DNA of 64,000 bases, from assembly GCA_033819885.1 (NCBI GenBank), contig JAQYUZ010000046.1:62001-126000 (forward strand), in the 5' to 3' direction. This document shows, piece after piece, positions 3,294 through 61,286 of the stretch (the first letter of the stretch is position 1; each line of letters opens with the position of its first letter). The notes under the pieces are model-generated. The model ran no database searches. It was not told the DNA's origin and saw nothing but the letters and a program-made list of their open reading frames with translations. The stretch comes from Microbotryomycetes sp. JL201 (Eukaryota > Basidiomycota > Microbotryomycetes). A program made the position numbers and the translations under genes.

Positions 3294-6037
3294 ATGCTGT
3301 CGGCAAGTGACGCTGTCGCCCGATTGCTACAGCGACGGCAGCAACGCGAACCGTTCGCGGACTTGCTCGAGCATCTGAGCGAAGCCGCGTATCCCACGCC
3401 ATCTCATGGGTTTCGTCACAGATTGAGAGCGCTTCATGCTGTTCTGGCTCTGTGAGCCGCCTTGTCGTCTCGCTTTGATTCTTCGAAGCTGACCCGGCAC
3501 GCGAGCAGCGCTCTGTTGTGCTCGCTTGCCCATGCGATGCTCGTCATTACAGATCTCAGGCGGCGACGAGGGCAAAACAGCTTGTGGATCGTCAAGACTG
3601 TTACTACAAGCAATGGAAGATTCATTGCAAGTCTCTCTGAACGAGGGACTGTGCAAATGCATGCTGACGCACTCGCAATCAATTTTGGCAGATCACAAAG
3701 TCTGTCGAGTGACTGTCGCTGATACCGGCATCGGGAAGGCTGACCGCGCGAAATGCTTGACAGTTCGCGCATCCTGTCGTGCATCATGTCTTTTCTCAAT
3801 TTGTCGCTTTGTCTGGCGTCTGAAGTCTACGGCAGCAGGGTACTTTATCAGCATACTTCTGTTTCTGCTTTGGGACTCTTTCGAGGCATCATGCCAGTTC
3901 TCATTGTCCTCCACCTCATCATCTTGACGTTCGGTCCACTTCAAGCGTTCTTGATCGATCCTGCGCACGGGGCGAGCTCGTCGACATCGAATGAAGAACA
4001 TCGCCACAGACGGCGGCGTGGTTTGCAGGTGGCTGACGTGCTCAACTTTGTGCTCGTCGCCATGTGCTCGCTAGGAATAATGACACTCGTTCCGGCTTGC
4101 GTCTTGACATACTACATTGCTTGCTCGGACCGCGACTTTCGAATGGCAACGACCGCCCTGCGCAAGCTCGGCAGCCAAGTCGACCCATCTCGACCGTTCG
4201 AGGGCACTACACTCGCACAGCTGCTACAAGTCGCTCAAGTTCTCGAAGCGATCAAAGACAAGACATACTGGTGAGCGATAGTGTGCAGGTACAACCGAAC
4301 TTTTAGCACTGAAATTGCGATCGTGAATAGCGCTTATATTGCAGGCAAGCCGAGGAAAAGCCGCTACTTGTATCCCACAACTGACAAGTCAACGTTTCCA
4401 GAATATGTCCCGCTCGGCATTTTGTGTCTCTTGCTAGCAATAGTCAACGCCTGCTCGTTGTGGACTGTTCGGAGGACGACAAAGACGGCTGAACGACGCG
4501 TCAAAATGTTTCCGGATGGCCTAGAAGATCAAATGGCGCTGAAATTTCCAACGATACACCCGCCGATGCAGTCGGCAGCCATCGCCTCCTTGTCCAGCAG
4601 TGGCCGACCGGCCCAATCTTTGTCAGCAAACAAGCTCGAGCCGATGAGGTCAGGCATCGGATCAATCGTGTCGGCATCAACAGAAACGACAGACAGCTCG
4701 CTCTCTTCCGTTCACGACCAGACTCTCATGGTCGACATGACGAAACTGTCTAAACGACAACTTGCCGCCATTGCAGGTAAAGCCGAGCACGGATTGCAAG
4801 GCGAAAAGGCGCGACAGCTATTGGCACTGTACGCCCAAGGTACAGAGCTGACGCTCGTTGCGAGTTTGTTCCTTGCCTTGTCCTTGCTCGGGTTTGGGCT
4901 CGCCACCTGGTTCTTGACGCTCGTGACCTTGCGAGGTGACGAAAAGTGGCCTTGGTCGACACAGGAAGCCATATTCACCGTAATCCAGTCAGTTATAGTG
5001 ATCGCCACGGCTGTGACTCTGCTGACGTCATCGACTCGTTCAGATGGTCGTATGCTCTGGCTCTGCTCATTGCGTACCCTTGGCTCATCTATGGCACGTG
5101 GTGCAGCATACCAGAGGCTCAGAACAAGATTATGTGGCCGAGCAAGTGCATTCTCCGTCGCGCCGCCCGCGCCTTGCATGGCCGGATCGCGTCGTGGCGA
5201 AGTCGAAGTGGCGTCCGTCCAGACTGTGATCCCGAACTCATGGTCAAGTCGACAGCAGCAAAGGGCCAAAGTCCCGGCCGGAGTTCACATCCGTCACGAT
5301 CGAGGCGCACTTCTGTGGCGACTCCGTATTCTGCGCGACGGGCTCCATACTCGCCGACAGCTCAAGGCGCAGCGCCTTCGGGTCGCGTTCGTGTGGTCAT
5401 CCAAGAAACGGTCACGGAAGAGTATAGGCTTGACGCTCTCGTGTCAAACAGTGCCGACGTCAGTCCGTTCTTTGTCAGCTCGACCGAACAATGTCCAGCG
5501 ACGAATTCGGCAGGAACAGTGCAGCCTCGTTCGATCGAGACTGTCATTGAAGGAGGATTTGCTCAGCCCGGTGCTGGTCAAGGACGTGTAGACGATGACG
5601 AAATCGAGGCGACATTGGGCTGCGGTGGAGGACTTGGCATCGAGTGGAACAAGCCAAGTTGGGCCATGCTCGATGCCGATCTGGGCACGAGTGCGGCGCC
5701 TCAAACGCGTGCAATCTCTGACATGCCGTTGCCGATGCCGACGGTACCGACGCGCGCTCGCTTGTCTGCGTCGCCGAGCCGGGGATCGAGGTTATCTGTC
5801 GATTCGCTAGCGACGGTGGCGACAGCTGCGACTTCAGTCGGCCTGCCCAAGATCACGTCGGCAATCGGTGGCGCGATCCCTTGGGAATGGCAACGAAGGT
5901 TGCCTCCTGCGTCATCTCGGCCGCCTCCAAAGACCAAAAGTGGTGGCGGCAAACATTCAGCCTTGTCGGCATCGTCACTGCCTGCGGTCTCACAGGACAT
6001 GGGTCCGTCAGTTTTGCCCAGATCGTCGTCGGCATAG
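3294..6037 (+). CDS. multi-pass integral membrane protein of unknown function
   Basis: Model with five exons: 3294-3451, 3560-3703, 3764-4270, 4307-4935, 4989-6037, totalling 2487 nt (828 residues). About six hydrophobic helices are visible, such as ILSCIMSFLNLSLCLA, MPVLIVLHLIILTFGPLQAF, LGIMTLVPACVLTYYIA, YVPLGILCLLLAIVNACSLW, LTLVASLFLALSLLGFGLA and YALALLIAYPWLIYGTW. A hydrophilic Ser-rich loop sits between helices four and five. A cytosolic-looking tail of roughly 320 residues is rich in Ser, Pro and Arg. I do not recognise the family. Two splice choices are weak: the 36-nt intron 4271-4306 is very short, and intron 4936-4988 removes a stretch that is itself strongly hydrophobic in the upstream frame. 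The first two introns are chosen to keep the frame, so the N-terminal 100 residues are least certain. Confidence 0.55.
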
Positions 6038-7698: not shown

Positions 7699-9556
7699 TT
7701 AGATGAACGTGTACGTGATCGGCACCTTTTCGGGGCGAGGAACTTATCAGCGTCCTGTTTGCACCAGTCTCGTCCAACGGCAAAAGCTCACCATGCCCTC
7801 CGACTCTGTGGCAATCGCCGTAAAGGCAGCTACACTGAGATCCAAGCAGGCGTTGTTGACACAGGTCGGGCAAGAGTCGGCCACGACGGCATCGACCGTG
7901 CGTCCGTCCGAGACGCGGGTGATGCGCACATGTTGACCGCAGTGGCTGCCGCCGTCATAAACGGCCGTTGGAAGAGCAACGAGAGGAGTGCTATCAGAGT
8001 TGACTTGACCGCACTGCTCGTCCGTCAATGGGTCAGCACCTCTCCGCTCGACCCACTAGCGGATGGACTTACGTTACCGGCGACGCCGTTCTGGTAAAAG
8101 TATGTAGCATAACCACCCGAGATGACGTCTCCACCACCATTTCCACCATTGTTGTTGCCTTGCGATCCGCCGTCCGAAGTGGGTTCCGGTGCAGCTTCGG
8201 TTGTGGTAGTCGTGGCGGCGGCGGCGGCCTCGGACGAGGACGAGGCGGCGGCAGCCGCTTCAGCCTCCTCACGAGCCTTCTTGTCAGCTTCTTCCTTGGC
8301 CTTGCGGTCAGCCTCGGCTTGGGCGGCGGCAGAGGCAGATGCTGCAGCCGCGGCGGCCGAGCTCGACGAAGCGGCGGCGGCCTGGTCCGCGGCGAGCTTG
8401 ACAGACTCGATGGATGCAGCATCGGCAGTTGTGGTCGTAGGAGCAGCCGTCGTCGTCTTGGGCGCGGCAGTCGTCGTTGGCGCATCAGTCGTCGTCGGCG
8501 CATCAGTCGTTGTCTGAACGTAATTGTTCTGGGGCTTGAGGGTGGCAACAGACGCCGCCGAAGCCGATGCAGCGGCGCGCACGCCAGAGCTTGAAGCGCC
8601 AAAGATGTCGGTCGCGCCGGCAGTCGACTCTGGCAGGTTCAAATCGTTGTCGACAAAGTGAAACTCGATCGGCAACACGCCCTGCTCGGTCGAGCCACCG
8701 AGCTGCTTGAAAACGCCAACGGGGACCTGGACGCTGCCGGCAAACCAGCTGGCATCTTGGACCGTCAGAGTCAGGCTCTGGCCGGTGGCTGGGTTGGTTG
8801 CGACGACCTTTTTACCGCACAAAGGCGAAGGCGAGTACACGTCGGGCCACAAGCCAGTCGGGAGCGAGAAGACGAGCGAGTTGTCACTGGGATCAGTCAA
8901 GCACGTCAGCTGCGCAGCTTTTCCGAGGCAGCAAGGATGTAGACACACTCGAAGTAGGTGTGGCTGCAACCAAAGCGCACGATTAGCAGAGATAAAGCTG
9001 TCATGGAGCAGGGGGCGCTCACCAAGCACTGTAGCCTCCAGTCTTGGCGTAGTACTGCGCTTGAGTGGTGTACACTGGACGGAGCAGTGCGACGAGGTCA
9101 GAGGCAGACGAGTTTCACCGAGTGTGTGCCACTCACCAGTGTCGCCGCGCTTGGCAAGAGTGCCTGCAAATGGTTGCACCGCGTCAGCATTCGATTCGTA
9201 GAACGCCCGTCGTTGTTGAGTGACGGAAATAAATTTGGCGAGGCGTTGACCTTTGGCGACGCGTCGAGGCGCGCCGTGCACGCGCCGCTCCGCAGCAACC
9301 GACGGCTTTTTTTGGTTTCGAGGCCGAAATGACGTGCCACACGTGCGTGGCGGCTGCATGACCACCATGGAGTGAGAGACTGACCTCGTTTGATTGACCG
9401 TTTGACCATGCGACGGTCGTGGGCGCGCCTGAGGTTGCTGTGGCCGTCGGCAGCGCGGAGGCTGCGCTCAACGGCGTGGTGTTCGTCACTGGTGCCAAAG
9501 GCGAGCACGGCACTGGCGCCGAGGGCGGCCACCGCGAGTCGAGTGAGAGACGGCAT
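7699..9556 (-). CDS. secreted protein with two DPBB (barwin/expansin-like) domains
   Basis: Seven exons in transcript order: 9556-9385, 9163-9137, 9074-9023, 8963-8945, 8909-8073, 8013-7792, 7725-7699; 1356 nt, 451 residues. The product begins with a signal peptide (LAVAALGASAVLAF) and dibasic Kex2-like sites (KRSIKRG, AKRGD). A first double-psi beta-barrel follows (LCGKKVVATNPATGQSLTLT, then SWFAGSVQVPVGVFKQLGG). Next comes a long Thr/Ala/Ser-rich linker with a charged helical stretch (DRKAKEEADKKAREEAEA). A second DPBB closes the protein (GGYATYFYQNG, CGQ, VRITRVSDGRTVDAVVADSC, LDLSVAAFTAIA). DPBB proteins of the expansin, loosenin and RlpA type bind or loosen wall polysaccharides, mostly without hydrolysis. 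The C-terminal nonapeptide after intron 7726-7791 matches the paralogue at 31046-33171 in position (SEGMVPI). It is divergent from the TMEM41-like gene across a 745-bp shared promoter region. Confidence 0.8.
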
Positions 9557-10301: not shown

Positions 10302-12381
10302 ATGTCGGGCCGTTCTCGCTCGTCGACTGTCGGATCCGTGACGAGTGCTCGACAAGTGTTGTTGCCGGAGCAGAGTCCGCTGCAGGCTGATGCGCGGGCG
10401 TTGGCTGGTGACGACCTGGCGACGGCGGCTCGAGCGCAGCACCAACTGAACCACTGGACCCGCGCGAGGGACGACGACGGGATCCTGTCGACGTCGCACG
10501 CATCGCAGTTGACGCTCAAGACGATCAGGCGGCCAGCCAGTGCGGGCAGCAGCGATGACGAGGACGAGGATGAGCCTGGCCAGCACTTGGCCCGCTCAAA
10601 CACCGAACACGCACACACACGCCAGCTCAAGCGCGGAGATCCTCACTTTATCCTGGATTTGACCCCTGCCGGTGCATCAAACGCCCCTGCAGGGCTCGCA
10701 CCAGCGACAGCAGCCAGTGGCAGAGACCGCAGCGCCACGTTCGGCGGAGTCGAACTGCCACAGTCGCCCGCACTGGACAATGCACGGCGCGAGTCTCTGC
10801 TGCAGCAACAGAAACAGAAACAACAACAGCACGCACCGCCATCACCAGGACGTAGACCATCGAGACCGTCACCTTTGATCCGCTCAAACTCGTCTTCGTC
10901 GTCACTGCATCTCGGTGGCGACAGGCATCCTCTCGTTCGCAAGTGGGTCAGGCTAGAAAAAGATCGACCGATGCTCGCTGCCGGCATCAAAGCAGGAGCG
11001 CTATTTCTCGCAAGCATCCTCGTCTTGTACATCTTGCTCCGTTCACTCTTGCCCCCGATCGACGACGAGCACAGAGACGCTGTCAAATTGCCAAAATCGT
11101 TTGACGATCTAAAACAGTTGAACGAAGTGCTGCAGGTGCGGAAAGCTGACATCAAAGCTATTCTGGCGCAGCTGACCCGGATCGGCTTGCAGATTTACAA
11201 AGAGCGGCATTACTACCGCGTGCTCGGCTCTTTCGTCACAGTCTACCTGTTTATTCAGGCGTTTTCAATCCCTGGTTCCATGTATTTGTCAATCCTTTGC
11301 GGCGCAATGTATGGAGTTCTGGTGGCCATGCCACTCGTTTGCTTTGTAGGTTTCCGCCGCCCAGACATGATATGCTATATGGCTCCACGCAGCTGACACG
11401 CACCTTTGGCCCACTAGTGCGTGGCGACGGGCGCCCTCTTGTGCTACTACATCTCTGCCGCGCTAGGCCCGGCAATACTGCACAATTCCGAGAAATGGCA
11501 GAAGCGCATTGACGCATGGACCGATCGAGTTCACGATCACAAGGAGAATTTGGTGTCCTATCTGATTGTTCTCAGGTCAGTCAGCGGATCACCGTGTCGC
11601 AGGGCCGGTGAGGCTTACGACACCGTTCAACATTAGAATTGCCCCACTTCCGCCACATTGGGGTGCGTGAGAGCAGCTATGTTTGACAGAGTCTTAGAGA
11701 TTGACTGATCTGATTGCACTCACAGTTGTCAACGTGGTGGCGCCCCATCTCGGCATATCGGTCTGGCACTTTTGGATCTCAACCTTCTTTGGCAAGCTGA
11801 ACACAGATGTCTGCAATTGAACACGGCTAACTTTGTCATCATCAGGTATCGCCGGCGTGTCATACATCCATACGACGATTGGCACGACTTTGGACCAAAT
11901 GACGTCCTCGAGCGATTTCCATCTGATCAGTTGGCAAAACGGCCTCGGTCTTGGTGGCATTATCGTTGCCGTTCTAATTCCGGTCATGCTGAGACGATTG
12001 TATCGCAAAGACCTGGAACAGGCGGCTCAAGATCCCGTCGACGAGGACGAGGGTACCGCTACGGCCAACGAGCCTTTGTTGCCGTCAAGCACGTCGGACA
12101 TTGCAATCCGTCCTCCACCAGGCAGCGATCGAGGTAGAAGGCCGAGCGCTAAAGCGGAGCGGCCGTTCACACTGCTTTCCGAGTCATCAGACGAGTCTGA
12201 CGAGGAGCAAGACCCGCATCCTTCGACTAGAGAGGTGGCGAGGCCACTCAGCCCAGCCATCGGTCGTGGCGGTAACGTCGACAAGGCGAGTCAACTTCTG
12301 GGGGTGCAGGTGCACAGCGCGACAACATTGTCGTCGATTTCTGACGATGACGATGAAGGCCACGCTCGACCTTGGCGGTGA
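10302..12381 (+). CDS. TMEM41/VTT-domain (DedA superfamily) membrane protein
   Basis: Five exons: 10302-11345, 11418-11575, 11637-11662, 11726-11791, 11846-12381; 1830 nt, 609 residues. A disordered, Ser- and Gln-rich cytosolic N-terminus of about 220 residues precedes the first helix (AGALFLASILVLYILLRSLL). The VTT core is clear: SIPGSMYLSILCGAMYG, then VATGALLCYYISAALGP, then the re-entrant signature IAPLPPHWVVNVVAPHLGI, then FGIAGVSYIHTTIGTTLDQM. TMEM41B/VMP1-type proteins of the ER act as lipid scramblases and support autophagosome and lipid-droplet formation; the same role here is an inference. The intron at 11792-11845 begins with GC (g|GCAAGC) and is the only choice that keeps FFGIAGVSY in frame. 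The acidic C-terminal tail of about 130 residues is not part of the family core. Confidence 0.8.
11792..11845 (+). other. GC-AG intron in the VTT gene
   Basis: The donor reads TTTG|GCAAGC and the acceptor CATCATCAG. No GT donor nearby gives the reading frame needed for the conserved FFGIAGVSYIH segment after the junction. GCAAGY is the usual form of minor GC donors spliced by the U2 machinery. Confidence 0.8.
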
Positions 12382-22520: not shown

Positions 22521-24382
22521 TTAATCGTCTTTGAGCCAATTTGACCAAGAATGCTCTTCAGAGCCAGCAGGCGCGCCTTTGATTGATTGCATGTCTTTCA
22601 GGCTCGGAGACGTGTTCAAAGGAACGAGACCCCATACGATATCAAGCGGGTCTGCGTCTGTGTCTGCGAGACTGATATCGTGCAAGTGGGCCAAGTCATC
22701 GGACGAGAGCGTCAAGGCTTTGAATGCTGTGCGAGACAGTTCGATAGAGCTGTCATGGAGAGAGTGCAGTGAGCTTTGAGGGCGATACTGTCACATGCGT
22801 TGACGTACTTGGGATCACATCTGCAAAGAACGCAACTCGTCAGTTTTCGCCCTCGTCTCCTGGAGTCATCGAAAGCCAACTCACTTTGTGCAAGCTCCGG
22901 TCACCCAGACTTGAACAGTTGCTCCTGTTTGCAGGTTGGAGACCAAGACTGTAGAATTGCATGTGGCATACGTTCCGCTCTGACCGGTACCGACAAACTG
23001 CGAAACAATTGCGTGAGTTCTCGTTCGGATCTGTGCCTGATACTACTTACAACTGGCAATGGAATGGCAGCGACAAAGTCTTGATCTGTCGTGACCGCTC
23101 CGCAAGGCGTCAAATGTCCAGCTGTATCGAAAACAAATCAGTCTAGAGGGTTTGAGAGGACGCGAATCGAACAAAGCTCACAAGCAGAGTATACGTGACT
23201 GCGTCCTTTAAAAGTCTGAAACGCCTCGGTCGCTAAAGACATGCGAAAGGGGACGGACAAGTAATTGACGGCATTGTTGGCTTGCTGCGTATGGGCTGAC
23301 GAGCGGTTGTCAGTTGAAGCCGAGACATGCGAGAGCAGACTCACCGGGAAGAATTGCCTGGGTCGTCGATGTGGTGCTAAGAGTCTGAGTCGCTTCCCAG
23401 TGACCGTTGTCTTGCCCTGGCAGACTGATCAGCTTGTGCAAAGTAATGGTTGCACTCGTCGCCGGGGAAGAGGCGCCACCGGCTTCAATTGCAATAAGCT
23501 CGGTTTGCGTTTGCATACGAGTCATCGTTTGCTTGGAAGCTGTTGGATGGGCAGAGAGAAACATGTCCTCGTCATCGTCTTTGAACCAGTCGACTGGGTT
23601 CCAGCTCCAATCAAAGTCGTCATCTTCATTGATGTTTGATGACAGGTCACTCGGCGAAGCAGTTGGACTTGCGAGGGTCTGAATTGAAGGTGGAGGAGCA
23701 AAACCTGGGTGTGATAAGCCGCTCTGATGGCCGTCTGTTGGCAGAGCTTGACCGCGTTGCAAAGCGTCTCCAACTTCTTTTGATAGTTGCTCGCCGACTC
23801 TGTGATTGTTGAGTACGACGACGACGATGGCGACAAGTCCGATAATGACCACGAGGGAGGCTCCTATGCCGACGTACAATGCTGTGCGACGAGGTGCAGA
23901 TTTTGTCGCCGGAGATGATGGTTGCGACGATCGCTGGAGAAAGCCTGGCAAAGGCAGAGGACGGCGAGTCGAGGCGTTTTCCAGGTCGTACATGGTTGCG
24001 CCGTTGGGGTTTTCGCGATATCGCGAGTCTGTTGCTCTCACGGAGGTAGACGCAGAGTCGAGGCGTGAATAGCGTTGCTATCCGACATGAACCGAGTACG
24101 TCAGGACGTACGACGTTGCGAAAAAGTCTCCGCTCCGCCACTCACGCTGTCGCGTTTTCCTAGAGCGCGCATGACGCGGCTCTTCGGCGGCTTCTCAAGG
24201 TCAAACAGCTCTTGCTCCAGTGCGTGATCTTCAGAGTCAGTTGATGCATCGCTAGAAAGCGAGTTTCGGCGTGCCTGCGATTGTCGAGCGGGCAGAGGAA
24301 GGCGTATGTGGCTGTCATCGTCGTCAGAGTCTGGTGCACGCTTGAGATCGTCGTATCGCTCGTGATCCGAGTACCTTGGCAT
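22521..24382 (-). CDS. type II membrane protein with extracellular DPBB domain
   Basis: Seven exons in transcript order: 24382-24146, 24077-23345, 23295-23182, 23121-23051, 22997-22885, 22820-22809, 22749-22521; 1509 nt, 502 residues. The N-terminus is acidic and Ser-rich (DSDDDDSHI), followed by Arg-rich segments. One helix comes next (ALYVGIGASLVVIIGLVAIV), so most of the protein faces outside. A disordered acidic stretch (EDDDFDWSWNPVDWFKDDDED) leads to a DPBB fold: PCGAVTTDQDFVAAIPLP, SGTYATCNSTVLVSN, GATVQVWVTGACTKC, then IELSRTAFKAL. The CTKC..IELS pattern corresponds to the CPTC..LDLS pattern in the two secreted DPBB proteins of this window. A 12-nt exon (22809-22820) encodes CDPN between strong splice sites. 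It is divergent from the ARID gene. Confidence 0.75.
22809..22820 (-). other. 12-nt microexon
   Basis: On the minus strand, TTTGCAG precedes and GTACGTCA follows the 12 bases, both strong sites. Its product completes the CTKCDPN segment of the DPBB domain. Skipping it would keep the frame but remove one of the conserved cysteines. Confidence 0.6.
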
Positions 24383-25494
24383 GTTCGGCTGAAGGATGAG
24401 AGGAACCAAGTCAGTCTGGTGCAAGCAGCGTCCTCTCCTGCTCCGCGGAGTTCCGTAAAGACTCAGGAGCCGACGTGTCTTGTCGTGAAAGCTGTGCTCA
24501 TGTTTACCCTCGAGATTTTCTTTTTTTTTTTTTTGATTATTTTTCAAAGGTGTCACGTGCGACGAACAGTGTTACCGTTGTGATGGACACTTTGGCGTTC
24601 GCACGTGGCAAACGAGTCGCGTGCGGCCGACGCGGGAGGTCTATGCGGGTATTAATAAAGGTAAGAGCAGGCGATGCCCGAACGCGCTGGTGACTTGATC
24701 TGTATGCCAACTAGCTGAAGGGGCTGCCCCGAATAATTCTCTGTGCAGTCAAACAGGGCATCCGCCGCGGCTCCGTCCGTTTTGGCTGAATCCTTACTCC
24801 CCGGACATTGCGCGTCGACGTCGAGTAGTCCGGCGAGGCCAGCGAGCAACACTGTGACGCCGCGTGGTGCCGACCCGTAACGGCGTGTGGCTGCTCAACT
24901 GCGCTCAAGGTCAGTTTCGGTCCTCGTCCCCGCCGCACGCGAACGGACGAGCTCGGCAGTGACGGGCACGCAACGACAGAACGTAACGACGTCGGCAAAT
25001 CCTCGGATAGGCAAGGTGGGCTAGGCTGGACCTGTCACTCGAACTCGACACGCCCTTGTCAGTGTGCAATCAGCGCATCGGCCGAGCACCGAAGCGGCCC
25101 GGCTGCGCGAGACACCACGCCCATGAGCGGCACAAGCGGCGCACACCAGATATGTTTCAGGAAATAACCAAACTGGCCCCATTGGCCGTTGAGCGGCGAA
25201 AGATCGCTTGCGGCCTTCGGTCGTCGCGGCCGCTGGCGTCACCTCGAACCGGCCCCGCGACGCACAAAGGGGCGCGCAACCATGATGGAACATCTGCCAG
25301 GTTCAGAGAGAACATCACGCATCCGCGCAGCACGCCTCTGCGGGACATCATGCCGGCACATCACGCTGCCCGCTCACGCAAGCCACCGCTGACTCGCCAC
25401 ACTTGGCTTATTCATTGGCCATATTTGCATGAAAACAGATTAGAAGCGCATCGAAACCTCCAGCTCGACTCTGACCCAGCGCAAGTCTGCCGCC
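24383..25494. other. divergent promoter region (1.1 kb)
   Basis: Separates the minus-strand DPBB membrane-protein gene from the plus-strand ARID gene. It contains a T-tract at 24521-24532 and an AT-rich tattaataaagg near 24651. No gene is supported, although frames of up to 187 codons occur (25056-25619 plus) that run into the ARID gene. Confidence 0.5.
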
Positions 25495-31045: not shown

Positions 31046-33171
31046 ATGCATTCGTCGATCGCGACTGCAGGAGCCGTCGCGCTCTGGCTCACGGCCGCCA
31101 CAACCGTCTCGGCCTCACACGAGCGCAGGCACTTTGCCCGAGACGCTATCCATCGTGTCATTGTCAAAAAGAGTCAGTCCTGCACACATGGCGTGTCGTG
31201 CCTGTCCGCGAATCGTCGTCCGGACTCGGACAAGACGCGACTTGTTTCAGGAATGTTTGCTGATCAACATGGCAATCCACACCCCACTACCGCCTCGGAC
31301 GGCAACGTCACACAGGGCAAGACGTGCCATTGGTCGGTAAGCTTGTCATGGACCCCCCGCGTGTATGCTTCTGCGTGCACTGACCGCGCTTTTTGGTCTG
31401 TGCGCGCACGCGTCCTCTCGCCTGGGCAAATATCCAGCCAAACTTGCTCTGCCCGGCACACTCGACAGGTCCGAAGCAACAGTCGAAAACGCCACAACGA
31501 ACGCGACTGGCAACGATGCACCTCAAACATCAGCGTGGCGCATCGGCGAGGCGCTCTGGTTCAACCAAACTGGCACAAGCACGGGCGCGTGCAAGCGAGT
31601 CCACACGTCAGTGCATAGACTGAACCTGTGTCAATATCATCGAACAGGGTGCTTACGACGTCCCTGTCCTCTACAGCAACGAGGACCTTGTGTTTGGTCT
31701 AAGTGCGCCACTGTACGGATCGCTCGGACAAATCTCACCAGACTGCGGTCGCCTCGTCGAGGTCGAGCACATTGAATCCGGCAAGACGTGAGTTCTCGTT
31801 TGATGTAAACACTCACGCTCATCGCAGGCTCATGCTAATGATACGCTCTCTCACAGCCTCACCTTGCCGGTTACCGACTCGAGCGGCAACGAATACTTTA
31901 CCTTGTCGATCCAAGCTTTCCGTCAATTTGCGCCACTGAGGACAGGACTGCTCGAAATCAAATGGCGATACGTAGGCGATTCGTCTACGGCGGCTGACGG
32001 CGGCGCCTCCAACTCGACCGCTCCGGCCCACAGTGGCAACTCGACAACGACTGCCCGTCCCGCCGGCGCGACGGCAGTCTCTACGGCCACAATCACTTCT
32101 GCTGCATCATCCGCCTCGGTCAACAGTGCCGCCTCGGCCCGCGAAGCCGCAGAATCGCGTGCGTCAGTGTCCTCGGCTCGAGCTGCAGCCGCTGAAGCCA
32201 GCAAGGAAGCTGCCGCTTCATCATCTTCCGCCGCCGCCGCCGCTGCTGCCGTAAGACACTCTTGCTCGAAACAAGCCGAGTCAAATCATCTGATGTTTTG
32301 CTTCCCTTCGTGCCCAGGCATCCGCATCTGCTGTCGCCGAACGCAAAGAGCGCGAAGCCCAAGACGCTCGCAAGAAAGCCGAGCGCGAAGAACGCGAGCG
32401 CAAGGAAGCTGCCGACCGCAAGAAAGCAGCAGCAGAAGAAGAAGCTGCTGCTGCTGCTGCTGCACGTCAGGCTCAAGAGAAGGCTGAACGAGAGGCGAGG
32501 GAAGAGGCTGAGCGCAAGGCGAGGGAGCAAGAGGAGCGCAAGAAACGCGAGGAAGAGGAACGTCAGCGCCGCGAGGAGGAGGAGCGCAAGAGGCGCGAGG
32601 AGGAGGATCGCAAGAAAGCCGAGGAGGATCGCAAGAAGGCCGAGGAGGCCAAGAACAACAGCAACAACGGTGGTGGCAATGTCGTCCGCGGCGGGTTCGC
32701 GACGTTTTATTACCAGAATGGCAACCCTGGGTGAGCTCTCTGCCGTCCTGTTTAGAAGCGTTCTGCGCTGACCACTCCTGCTTTTTAGTCACGTGAGCTC
32801 GACTTGCGTTTCCTCGAACGAAAATAAGTAATGCTGACAACGTGAAACAAGTGCGGCACGGTCGCTGCCGAAAGTGACAAGGTGATTGCCTTGCCGACCA
32901 ACACGTATGCCAACGGAAAGCATTGCGGCAGACAGATTAGGCTCACGCGCACCGACAACGGTCGTTCCGTCGTTGCTACGGTCCGGTGAGTGCAACTAGG
33001 TTGACAGTCTGCGGTCTGCATCACACACACATTGACACTGGTTTCAATTACCCTAGCGACTCTTGCCCGACATGCCATAACGATCAAAGCCTCGACCTCT
33101 CGGTTGGAGCATTCAATGCCATTGCGTCAGAGTCCGAGGGCATGGTCCCGATCGAATGGGTGTGGGCGTAA
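31046..33171 (+). CDS. second secreted double-DPBB protein, with charged-helix linker
   Basis: It starts with a signal peptide (IATAGAVALWLTAATTVSAS). The resolved exons are 31046-31172, 31251-31336, 31648-31787, 31857-32250, 32318-32730, 32789-32792, 32852-32985 and 33057-33171; the exons between 31337 and 31647 are uncertain. The first DPBB contains LWFNQTGTSTGACKR, then DCGRLVEVEHIESGKTLTLP and SIQAFRQFAPLRTGLLEIKW. A Ser/Ala-rich linker passes into about 100 residues of nearly pure Glu, Arg, Lys and Ala, then an Asn/Gly hinge. The second DPBB follows (GGFATFYYQNG, CGTVAAESDKVIALP, IRLTRTDNGRSVVATV, DSCPTC, LDLSVGAFNAIASESEGMV). It is the paralogue of the minus-strand gene at 7699-9556, with the same domain order. 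The likely role is binding or loosening wall polysaccharide. Confidence 0.75.
32336..32655 (+). other. segment encoding an ER/K-type charged helix
   Basis: This stretch encodes long alternation of acidic and basic residues (for example EREAREEAERKAREQEERKK and REEEERKRREEEDRKKAEED). Such patterns form stable single alpha-helices in known myosins and kinesin-related proteins. Here it lies between two extracellular DPBB domains, where it could act as a stiff spacer. Confidence 0.7.
32789..32792 (+). other. 4-nt microexon
   Basis: The bases TCAC lie between a strong acceptor (CTGCTTTTTAG) and a strong donor (GTGAGC). The exon before ends with two bases of a codon (GG), and the exon after must start in phase 0 at TGC for the conserved CGTV. 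Only inclusion of exactly four bases (GGT CAC) restores the frame; a single intron 32731-32851 gives a quick stop. Confidence 0.65.
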
Positions 33172-59658: not shown

Positions 59659-61286
59659 ATGTTTGCATCGACAGTGGCTGCCTGCATTGTTCTAGCCACT
59701 GCTGCTCGTCTCCAAGGCGCGAACGCCCAGACGCTGTCGCCATACACGCTCGTCCAGCGATGGCAAGGCGCGACATTCTTTGACGGATGGACATACTATG
59801 GCAAGTACGACAACCTTACAAACGGAGGTATGTCACTGTTTGAGTGTGGCCATATCTGCGTGGGAGTGTACCCGGCATGGTGTGCTACACGGCTCCTGAC
59901 GAGTCGTACGACGCGCGCGCGCGCATTTTGAGGCCCGAGCGTTGGCGCTTGCTGCAAGCGATGCCCATGCCGCACCCACTCGTGGAGGCAAGATGGAAAA
60001 ACAAATTATCTGGACTGACGTGACCCCACCAGACGTCAACTTTGTCAACAGGTCGGATTCGAGCCAACTCACGTTTGTCAACAGCGCCGGCAACGCAATC
60101 ATCAAAGTAGACAACACGTCAGTTGTTCCTTACAACGAAAAGCGCAACACGGTCAGGATCACCTCGGAAAAACAGGTACGCGGGCGTGAAGCTAGAGCCG
60201 ACCTTGCCACCGCGTACTCATCTTGCCATTCCAAACCCGTGAAATCCGTGCTCGGTAGTTCGGAATCGGCTCTCTATGGGTCATGGATGCGGTGCATGTT
60301 CCGTATGGAGTGAGTCTCTCGTGCGACCATTGCGTATTGCTGCTGATTCAAATTCGCACAGTGCTCCGTCTGGCCGTAAGTGCCTCTCGAAACCCGCTCG
60401 CAACAGGTGACATTTGGTGACCGCTTACGTGTTCAGCGCGTTCTGGTCACATGCCCCCGTGTGGCCGTCGGGAGGCGAGATTGACACATTTGAAGGTGTG
60501 AATCTAGTGACGCGCAACCAAATGGCGGTAAGCAGTAATGCGCCTATTGTCCATCTTGTCCTGTCTTGCTCGCGCAACGACATCCGCTGAAGTGTACCTA
60601 TTCTGATGCAGCTCCACACGCGGTCGGGATGCACCGCAGGAAACACGTCTGCCGCCCAGACAGGCAACCTGACGTACGGCAACTGCGATGCCAACGTCAA
60701 TTCAAACTCTGGCTGCACTGTCGTCGACCCCGACGCCAATTCTTATGGGGCCGCTTTCGCCGCTGCCGGAGGAGGGTTGTGGGCGACAGAAATGGCAGAG
60801 ACGGGCATCTCAATCTGGTTTTTTTCTCGGAACAATATTCCGGTTGACCTTGACGTTACTCGCAACGCATCGGCTGTTCCCAACCCCGCTAGCTGGGGCA
60901 CTCCAACAGCCTACTACCCGTCAAGCTCGTGCGACATTGCACAGTTCTTTCAACCCCAGCAACTGACGTTCACCATCACGCTGTGTGGCGATTGGGCCGG
61001 CAACGCTTTCGTGTTTAACCAAACTTGTCAGGGTCGATGCTACTTGGACTATGTCTTGAACGCCTCGAACTATGATCAAGCGTACTTTGAAGTGAGGCAC
61101 GTGTCGGTGTACTCTGACGGGTCTTCAAATTCTACCTTGCCTTCATCGACGAAATCGACGACCGGCTCGCAAGCTACGACTGCGCCTACGTCCTCTGCTC
61201 TCGCTTTACAAAACAATGGGATTGTTTTAGCAACTATCGCAGTTGTGAGCGCTGCTGCGTGCGCTTGGACGACGTTCCTTTCATAG
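59659..61286 (+). CDS. GH16 glycoside hydrolase, GPI-anchored type
   Basis: Six exons: 59659-59827, 60033-60175, 60259-60309, 60362-60375, 60437-60527, 60612-61286; 1143 nt, 380 residues. A signal peptide (MFASTVAACIVLATAARLQG) is followed by the fungal GH16 laminarinase-like core: YTLVQRWQGATFFDGWTYYG, KRNTVRITSEKQ, FGIGSLWVMDAVHVPYGCSV, then WPAFWSHAPVWPSGGEIDTF. The catalytic E-I-D-x-x-E motif is complete (GEIDTFEGVN). A Ser/Thr-rich stretch (TLPSSTKSTTGSQATTAPTS) and a hydrophobic end (IVLATIAVVSAAACAW) fit GPI attachment. The family cleaves or remodels beta-1,3(4)-glucans; wall-anchored action is inferred. A 14-nt exon supplies CSVWP. The first intron is 205 nt. Confidence 0.88.
60362..60375 (+). 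other. 14-nt microexon in the GH16 gene
   Basis: The bases tgctccgtctggcc lie between TTCGCACAG and GTAAGT. They encode CSVW plus two bases of Pro, a segment conserved in GH16 proteins between the HVPYG and AFWSHAP parts, and they are needed for the frame. Confidence 0.85.

What the first reader, a model, noticed from the sequence alone, without database searches (positions are those of the whole stretch)
32731..32851. A 4-nucleotide exon in a secreted DPBB gene
Seen directly: between GG|GTGAGC at 32731 and AAG|TGC at 32851, a single intron breaks the frame. The only way to reach the conserved CGTV core is to include TCAC (32789-32792), which sits between a textbook acceptor and a textbook donor. 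The paralogue at 7699-9556 has one simple intron at the same place, so an intron gain inside the old intron border is plausible. Four-base exons are extremely rare and need splicing by some recursive or intron-definition route.
Basis: partly seen in the sequence, partly recalled or inferred. Interest (0 to 1): 0.8.

Follow-up and report, generated by a model that had tools for sequence, protein, structure and literature searches.

The report
Four-base exon in a fungal gene
A fungal gene for a secreted protein appears to carry a working exon only four bases long between two ordinary short introns; such tiny exons are already known in plants, humans and one other fungal gene, but they are easily missed by genome annotation.

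Summary
The 121 bases between the exon ending at 32730 and the one starting at 32852 read as intron A (32731-32788, 58 nt), exon TCAC (32789-32792) and intron B (32793-32851, 59 nt). Each intron has a GTGAGC donor and a CTGAC branch-point match. Removing all 121 shifts the frame; with TCAC the product is NPG-H-CGTV. Eight of 8 other DPBB domains that cover this motif in the genome search have exactly one residue before that cysteine, seven of them without an intron there, so homology fixes the four bases needed. A paralogue has one intron exactly at B, so A is the extra one. Other short exons in this genome also fit conserved proteins. Against: B ends in a poor AAG acceptor, my gene finder did not use that acceptor, Pfam does not choose between variants, and no RNA or orthologue could be examined. 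Constitutive 1-nt exons (Arabidopsis, Fusarium) and a 4-nt exon (human MPC1) are published. This is a well-supported new member of a known kind, probably spliced by intron definition, one intron after the other (inferred).

The parts
31046..31332 (+). first exon (signal-peptide-like start MHSSIATAGAVALWLTAATTVSAS, judged by eye); its 3' end is uncertain
   Evidence: open frame; several possible junctions to the next exon, all weak: the one used in the model, 31333-31468, scores -2.9, below all 107 reference introns
31469..31606 (+). exon 2, leads into the first DPBB-like domain (..TGACKRVHT)
   Evidence: one open frame from 31470 to the stop when spliced
31677..31787 (+). exon 3, first DPBB-like domain (NEDLVFGLSAPLYG..CGR..)
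   Evidence: intron 31607-31676, signal score at the 91st percentile of 107 reference introns
31857..32250 (+). exon 4, end of first DPBB-like domain and Ser/Ala-rich linker
32318..32730 (+). exon 5, Glu/Lys/Arg-rich linker and start of second DPBB domain (..GGFATFYYQNGNPG)
32731..32788 (+). intron A, 58 nt, the extra intron: GTGAGC, CTGAC (A at 32771, 17 nt before the end), TTTTTAG
   Evidence: signal score at the 83rd percentile of 107 reference introns; no other copy found in the genome
32789..32792 (+). 4-nt exon TCAC: last base of a Gly codon plus a His codon (GG|T CAC|TGC)
   Evidence: frame and ungapped alignment to paralogues
32793..32851 (+). intron B, 59 nt, shared with the paralogue: GTGAGC, CTGAC (A at 32837, 14 nt before the end), weak acceptor ACAAG
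   Evidence: same position and phase 0 as the paralogue's intron 8072-8014; 10th percentile score; no other copy found
32852..32985 (+). exon 7, DPBB core CGTVAAESDKVIALPTNTYANGKHCGRQIRLTRT..
33057..33171 (+). exon 8, end of DPBB domain and stop codon TAA (33169-33171); preceding intron 32986-33056
7699..9556 (-). paralogous two-domain DPBB gene with one intron (8072-8014) at the site of intron B; it has its own 15-nt exon at 8963-8949
   Evidence: clean seven-exon open frame

Best explanation
TCAC is a constitutive 4-nt exon. Shown from sequence: it lies between two introns of normal length for this genome, each with its own donor, branch-point match and acceptor; its inclusion restores the frame; and it supplies the one residue that each comparable DPBB domain I could align has at that place. 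Inferred: each short intron is recognised as a unit (intron definition) and the two are removed one after the other, because four bases cannot hold a 3' splice-site complex and U1 together. Intron A, with the stronger signals, probably goes first. The U1-facing bases -3 to -1 of donor B (CAC) all lie in the tiny exon, so donor B reads the same before and after A is removed. Inferred on evolution: an older intron (B, shared with the paralogue) was joined later by a second one (A) four bases upstream. Keeping A or B, or skipping TCAC, gives an early stop, so among these forms only the fully spliced one makes a complete protein.
For: Frame: with A and B removed, one open frame runs from 31470 to the stop. 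Homology: of 11 other DPBB domains found by tblastn, 8 cover the G-x-C motif and 8 of 8 have exactly one residue between G (or S) and C; seven read through it with no intron (one of the seven, C37:113993, is a weak alignment, E 0.07). A profile built from 6 of those 8 (C12:640816 and C37:113993 left out) scores the TCAC product 134.6 bits, the 1-nt variant 127.5, the 10-nt variant 127.8, the 144-nt single-intron variant 105.4 and the skip form 12.7. Intron B matches the paralogue's intron in position and phase. Signals: intron A at the 83rd percentile, donor and branch point of B normal; 0 of 20,000 shuffles do as well. A home-made gene finder without homology also chose TCAC as an exon, by 6.1 nats over the best parse without it. 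After each branch point the first AG is the one used here. Other short exons in the genome agree with conserved proteins: 14 nt in an EMC3 gene, 14 nt in a glucanase-like gene, 11 and 10 nt in a mitochondrial carrier, 15 nt in the paralogue.
Against: No transcript was seen. Intron B ends in AAG, which 3 of 107 predicted reference introns use, and its acceptor is poor (total at the 10th percentile); the paralogue's last intron also ends in AAG. The same gene finder preferred acceptor 32874 for the second intron, which would stop the protein at once; restricted to introns A and B it used A but left B in. Pfam DPBB_1 does not favour the 4-nt form: 38.6 bits, against 39.6 for the 1-nt variant, 39.3 for the 10-nt variant and 36.3 for the 144-nt intron. 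The other possible 4-nt exon, AAGC, scores slightly higher on the paralogue profile (135.9), but needs a 25-nt intron. The first exon junction of the gene could not be settled. The reference introns are predictions.
Confidence: 0.86

Rival explanations
1. One longer intron, 32731-32874 (144 nt), is removed and the protein lacks HCGTVAAES.
For: In frame, no stop; its acceptor scores better than that of B (-0.3 against -4.1); Pfam still recognises the domain at 36.3 bits.
Against: Deletes the conserved Cys-Gly and its neighbours (105.4 against 134.6 bits on the paralogue profile); 144 nt is long here (5 of 107 reference introns are 115 nt or more); total signal score 3.0, 5th percentile; leaves a complete intron A and a good donor inside it unused; skips the first AG after the branch point.
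Confidence: 0.05
2. Intron B is no longer spliced, or is spliced to a poor site, and the gene now makes a shortened protein that ends soon after NPGH; the DPBB exons downstream are relics.
For: Weak AAG acceptor; the home-made gene finder ends the gene early.
Against: Exons downstream are fully open, keep the cysteines, match paralogues at up to 61-62% identity and are joined by a further in-frame intron. The paralogue's last intron also ends in AAG and still joins conserved EGM-VPI.
Confidence: 0.05
3. A small base-calling or assembly error changed the length of a single intron or exon here, and no tiny exon exists.
For: Cannot be tested without reads; one assembly only.
Against: A single intron 32731-32851 lacks four bases, not one; a one-base error would restore frame but not the residue between G and C that the paralogues have. 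An error would hardly create a complete intron with branch point, acceptor and donor at the right spacing (0 of 20,000 shuffles).
Confidence: 0.03
4. A twin intron (stwintron) or zero-length recursive site: the 121 bases leave in two steps and no bases stay in the mRNA.
For: Two introns back to back.
Against: Removing all 121 bases shifts the frame and stops after NPGAARSLPKVTR; the acceptor and donor are four bases apart, not joined.
Confidence: 0.01

Closest known systems
1-nt exon of CYP621A in Fusarium (PMC12940212; first of three parts of the text read)
   Same: Fungal; [quoted passage not shown] needed for frame; fixed by comparison with an intronless relative; lies in a conserved motif
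   Different: One base rather than four; 20 orthologues named and RNA reads support it; different gene family
1-nt exon of APC11 in Arabidopsis (PMC4674806; abstract and passages)
   Same: Constitutive, not a multiple of three; its authors suggest intron definition combined with stepwise removal
   Different: Plant; shown by experiment
4-nt exon of human MPC1 (PMC9929638; abstract and passages)
   Same: Same length; constitutive; not a multiple of three
   Different: Flanked by introns over 12 and 3 kb and argued to work by exon definition; shown by experiment
20-nt switch microexon of Xlr2 in Trichoderma (PMC11121469; abstract and passages)
   Same: Fungal tiny exon missed by annotation
   Different: Conditional switch, 20 nt; here the skipped and retained forms end early, so no useful switch is apparent
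Microexons of Phanerochaete chrysosporium P450 genes (PMC1184071; passages)
   Same: Fungal genes with short introns and many tiny exons
   Different: Shortest exon listed there is 6 bp

Membership tests
Constitutive ultra-short spliceosomal exon (under 10 nt) | AG before and GT after the exon, with a complete intron on each side | tested here: met
   58- and 59-nt introns, each with GTGAGC, CTGAC and AG; acceptor of B weak
Constitutive ultra-short spliceosomal exon (under 10 nt) | Inclusion needed for frame, length fixed by a relative without the introns | tested here: met
   8 of 8 covering domains have one residue there, seven without an intron
Constitutive ultra-short spliceosomal exon (under 10 nt) | Spliced transcripts contain the exon | not testable with these tools
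   no RNA data
Constitutive ultra-short spliceosomal exon (under 10 nt) | Conserved in orthologues | not testable with these tools
   the genome collections hold prokaryotes, phages, plasmids and viral contigs, metagenome scans are capped at 0, and the tool states that this genome has no relatives there; no collection scan was made
Switch microexon (multiple of three, conditional) | Both forms keep the frame | tested here: not met
   skip form stops after NPGAARSLPKVTR
Stwintron (definition recalled) | An internal intron splits a splice signal of an outer intron and no bases between them stay in the mRNA | tested here: not met
   without the four bases the frame is lost
DPBB domain proteins (Pfam PF03330) | Curated score reached | tested here: met
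   38.6 bits against cut-off 28.8
DPBB domain proteins (Pfam PF03330) | Enzyme or binding activity | not tested
   sequence only; nearest solved chain is 9ce9_A, an RlpA-like DPBB protein, E 1.5e-14

The most novel reading that the evidence does not exclude
This fungus tolerates very short exons as a rule, because its introns are removed strictly by intron definition. New introns land next to old ones and split exons down to a few bases, leaving constitutive non-3n exons that act only as spacers. The two sister DPBB genes would be two snapshots: a 15-nt exon in one, a 4-nt exon in the other. The whole genome would then be a natural series for measuring how short an exon can become.
Probability: 0.35. 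Interest if true: 0.55.

Novelty: new member of a known kind. Interest (0 to 1): 0.4.

Why it matters
Exons this short can break gene annotation: my own simple gene finder ended this gene early and lost a whole secreted domain. The case has an internal control, a paralogue with only the older intron. It suggests a simple way in which such exons arise: a second intron gained beside an existing one. It does not open a new kind of splicing, because 1-nt and 4-nt exons are published.

Tried and rejected
Duplication of intron B as the source of intron A: the two share GTGAGCTC at the start, but 510 of 4,000 random intron pairs align as well, and no other copy of either intron was found in the genome. 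So the origin of A is open.

Pfam as arbiter between splice forms: it does not decide. A profile from the genome's own paralogues was used instead.

First training of a home-made gene finder drifted and fused genes; it was replaced by a stricter one. Its early acceptor model excluded AAG by construction. That was seen and changed. In some searches the weights at position -3 were set by hand after the counts.

A predicted 2-nt exon TT at 11726-11727 in the window was checked and rejected: reading the three frames shows a longer exon there that seems to end at a GC donor. So tiny exons from the ab initio finder alone are not reliable.

Searches used wrong joins at the 5' end of the target; one search found none because of a wrong end coordinate; searches used wrong joins in the paralogue. 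Searches hold the corrected target and the corrected paralogue. The first intron of the target is still uncertain: the finder's better-scoring paths use donor 31396, the model uses donor 31333.

Not done: structure prediction (the spliced protein is not a contiguous reading of the window), scans of the viral, genome or metagenome collections, and naming the species.

Full report
What is there. The window lies in a 17.15-Mb genome of 92 contigs, by its gene structure a fungus (inference). The 121 bases from 32731 to 32851 split into 58 nt (GTGAGC ... CTGAC ... TTTTTAG), the four bases TCAC (32789-32792), and 59 nt (GTGAGC ... CTGAC ... ACAAG). The branch-point A is 17 nt from the end of intron A and 14 nt from the end of intron B, and in both the AG used is the first after it. 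The median length of 107 predicted reference introns is 65 nt, with 5 of 107 at 115 nt or more, so 58 and 59 nt are ordinary and 121 nt is unusual.

Why four bases are needed. The upstream exon ends in CCT GG and the downstream exon starts TGC GGC ACG GTC. Joined directly they shift the frame and stop after NPGAARSLPKVTR. With TCAC they read CCT GGT CAC TGC GGC, that is P G H C G. tblastn with the domain found 16 matches in the genome. Leaving out the three from the gene itself and merging pieces gives 11 DPBB domains. Eight cover the motif, and 8 of 8 have exactly one residue before the Cys: GNCG three times, GSCG twice, GACG twice and SACG once (C41:69783 after splicing). Seven of these read straight through without an intron there; one of the seven, C37:113993, is a weak alignment (E 0.07). 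The three that do not cover it in that search are on C56, C41:133857 and C41:70661. A twelfth, diverged domain at 22521-24501 (minus) was met later and is not in this count. The length of the missing piece, one base plus one codon, is therefore set by homology, independently of the splice signals.

Alternatives. Of the GT-AG, GC-AG and AT-AC single introns tried (donors 32639-32860, 30 nt or more), 13 are in frame without a stop. All 13 delete conserved residues; the best keeps donor 32731 and uses acceptor 32874, losing HCGTVAAES. Two-intron alternatives with a 1-nt exon C or a 4-nt exon AAGC need introns of 28 or 25 nt; a 10-nt exon needs a very poor donor. On a profile made from 6 of the 8 covering paralogues the scores were AAGC 135.9, TCAC 134.6, 10-nt 127.8, 1-nt 127.5, 168-nt intron 110.5, 144-nt intron 105.4, intron B kept 12.9 and skip 12.7 bits. 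Pfam's general DPBB model does not separate them: TCAC 38.6, 1-nt 39.6, 10-nt 39.3, 144-nt 36.3, 168-nt 36.2. That result is against my reading as far as it goes; the genome's own paralogues are the closer yardstick.

Signals and chance. With weights learned on this genome, and the position before AG set by hand from the counts, intron A scores 12.9 (83rd percentile of 107) and B 5.6 (10th percentile). B is pulled down by its acceptor. AAG ended 3 of 107 reference introns with coding flanks and 26 of 332 of all predicted introns. These reference introns are predictions, not verified. In shuffles of the inner bases, 1,810 of 20,000 contained some AG-N4-GT with two introns of at least 45 nt, 6 had both scores at or above the lower observed one, and none reached the observed sum. 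With the last 20 bases of B held fixed and any exon of 1, 4, 7 ... 31 nt allowed, 0 of 20,000 reached it. A home-made gene finder without homology also chose TCAC, by 6.1 nats over the best parse without it. But it then preferred acceptor 32874, which ends the protein at once, and when only A and B were allowed it used A and left B in. So it supports intron A and the exon's start, not the end of intron B; that end rests on frame and homology.

The gene. The target encodes a signal-peptide-like start, a first DPBB-like domain, a Ser/Ala-rich and Glu/Lys/Arg-rich linker and a second DPBB domain. Pfam reports two DPBB_1 stretches, 47.7 bits for the whole protein. From 31470 to the stop at 33169-33171 the spliced frame is clean. 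The junction of the first exon is not settled; the in-frame choices are weak.

The paralogue. The gene at 9556-7699 on the minus strand gives a clean seven-exon frame of 442 residues. Its intron 8072-8014 sits before the same Cys codon in phase 0, exactly where intron B sits (GGT AAC|TGC against GGT CAC|TGC). So B is shared by the two genes and A is extra. A gain of A in the target is the simplest history; loss in the paralogue is not excluded. The paralogue has its own 15-nt exon (8963-8949) in its first DPBB domain, again just beside the conserved Cys, made by an intron that the target lacks there (target TGC AAG is unbroken). A and B share their first eight bases, but this is no more than expected (510 of 4,000 pairs), and no other copy of either was found in the genome.

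Is this one gene or a habit of the genome? In 264 kb (the window and 200 kb of contig C12) the finder predicted 275 internal exons with a median of 158 nt; 16 are 20 nt or less and 6 are 10 nt or less. Predictions of this size are unreliable: a 2-nt one in the window was wrong. I looked at nine of the genes concerned and sent seven proteins to Pfam and three to the solved structures. Several agree with homology. A 14-nt exon in an EMC3 gene lies inside an ungapped stretch of the alignment to solved EMC3. A 14-nt exon at 60362-60375 of the window encodes CSVWP of a glucanase-like gene, ungapped there against 2cl2, although Pfam gave no match to that protein at E 0.01. 11- and 10-nt exons lie inside a Mito_carr match (solved carriers align over the same region, with gaps). 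A 12-nt exon at 22820-22809 (minus) lies inside a sub-threshold match to DPBB_1 (18.9 bits, cut-off 28.8). For a 20-nt exon in L048 and a 17-nt exon in L038 the Pfam matches do not reach the exon. So very short exons seem to recur here, and TCAC is the shortest one with homology support in what I examined.

How it probably works. Shown: the signals, the frame, the homology. Inferred: each intron is recognised as a unit, and the two are removed in turn, since four bases are too few for a 3' splice-site complex and U1 to sit together. Intron A, with the better signals, may go first; donor B keeps its bases -3 to -1 (CAC) either way. Keeping A (immediate TGA), keeping B (NPGHVSSTCVSSNENK*) or skipping TCAC (NPGAARSLPKVTR*) all end the protein early, so among these only the fully spliced form makes a whole protein.

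What is known. A 1-nt exon in Fusarium CYP621A, argued in just this way and supported by reads, was published in 2026 (PMC12940212, first of three parts read). A 1-nt exon in Arabidopsis APC11, whose authors suggest intron definition with stepwise removal, dates from 2015 (PMC4674806, abstract and passages). A constitutive 4-nt exon is known in human MPC1 (PMC9929638, abstract and passages). In P. chrysosporium P450 genes the shortest exon listed is 6 bp (PMC1184071, passages). In two Cryptococcus papers the passages that mention microexons concern aligner settings. Searches for a 4-nt exon by six spellings gave three papers, none fungal by title; a search for microexons with 'fungal genomes' and 'spliceosomal' gave none; stwintron with microexon gave none. 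These cover only the open-access library held here.

Verdict. The finding is real at the level of sequence and comparison, with about 0.86 confidence that TCAC is an exon. It is a new member of a known kind. The main gap is transcript evidence.

Noticed in passing
window 8949-8963 (-): A 15-nt exon (CCACACCTACTTCGA) in the first DPBB domain of the paralogue, between 59- and 62-nt introns, beside the conserved Cys.
   Followed up: yes
window 60362-60375 (+): A 14-nt exon encodes CSVWP of a glucanase-like gene; alignment to solved laminarinase 2cl2 is ungapped there.
   Followed up: yes
window 22809-22820 (-): A 12-nt exon in a third, diverged DPBB-like gene (22521-24501, minus); domain match below the Pfam cut-off.
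   Followed up: partly
window about 11726-11845 (+): A gene with a sub-threshold VTT-domain match (30.5 bits, cut-off 33.9) seems to use a GC-AG intron (TTTG|GCAAGC ... CATCAG|G); the automatic model misread it as a 2-nt exon.
   Followed up: partly
L041:5321-5334 (+): 14-nt exon in an EMC3 gene, in an ungapped stretch against solved EMC3.
   Followed up: yes
L036:3429-3439 and 3696-3705 (+): 11- and 10-nt exons in one mitochondrial carrier gene, inside the Pfam Mito_carr match.
   Followed up: partly
window 7726-7791 (-): The paralogue's last intron also ends in AAG and joins EGM to VPI; the target has no intron there but has one at 32986-33056 that the paralogue lacks, so intron turnover between the two genes is high.
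   Followed up: partly
window 31333-31468 (+): No well-scoring way to join the first exon of the target to its second; the start of the gene may be different from the model.
   Followed up: partly
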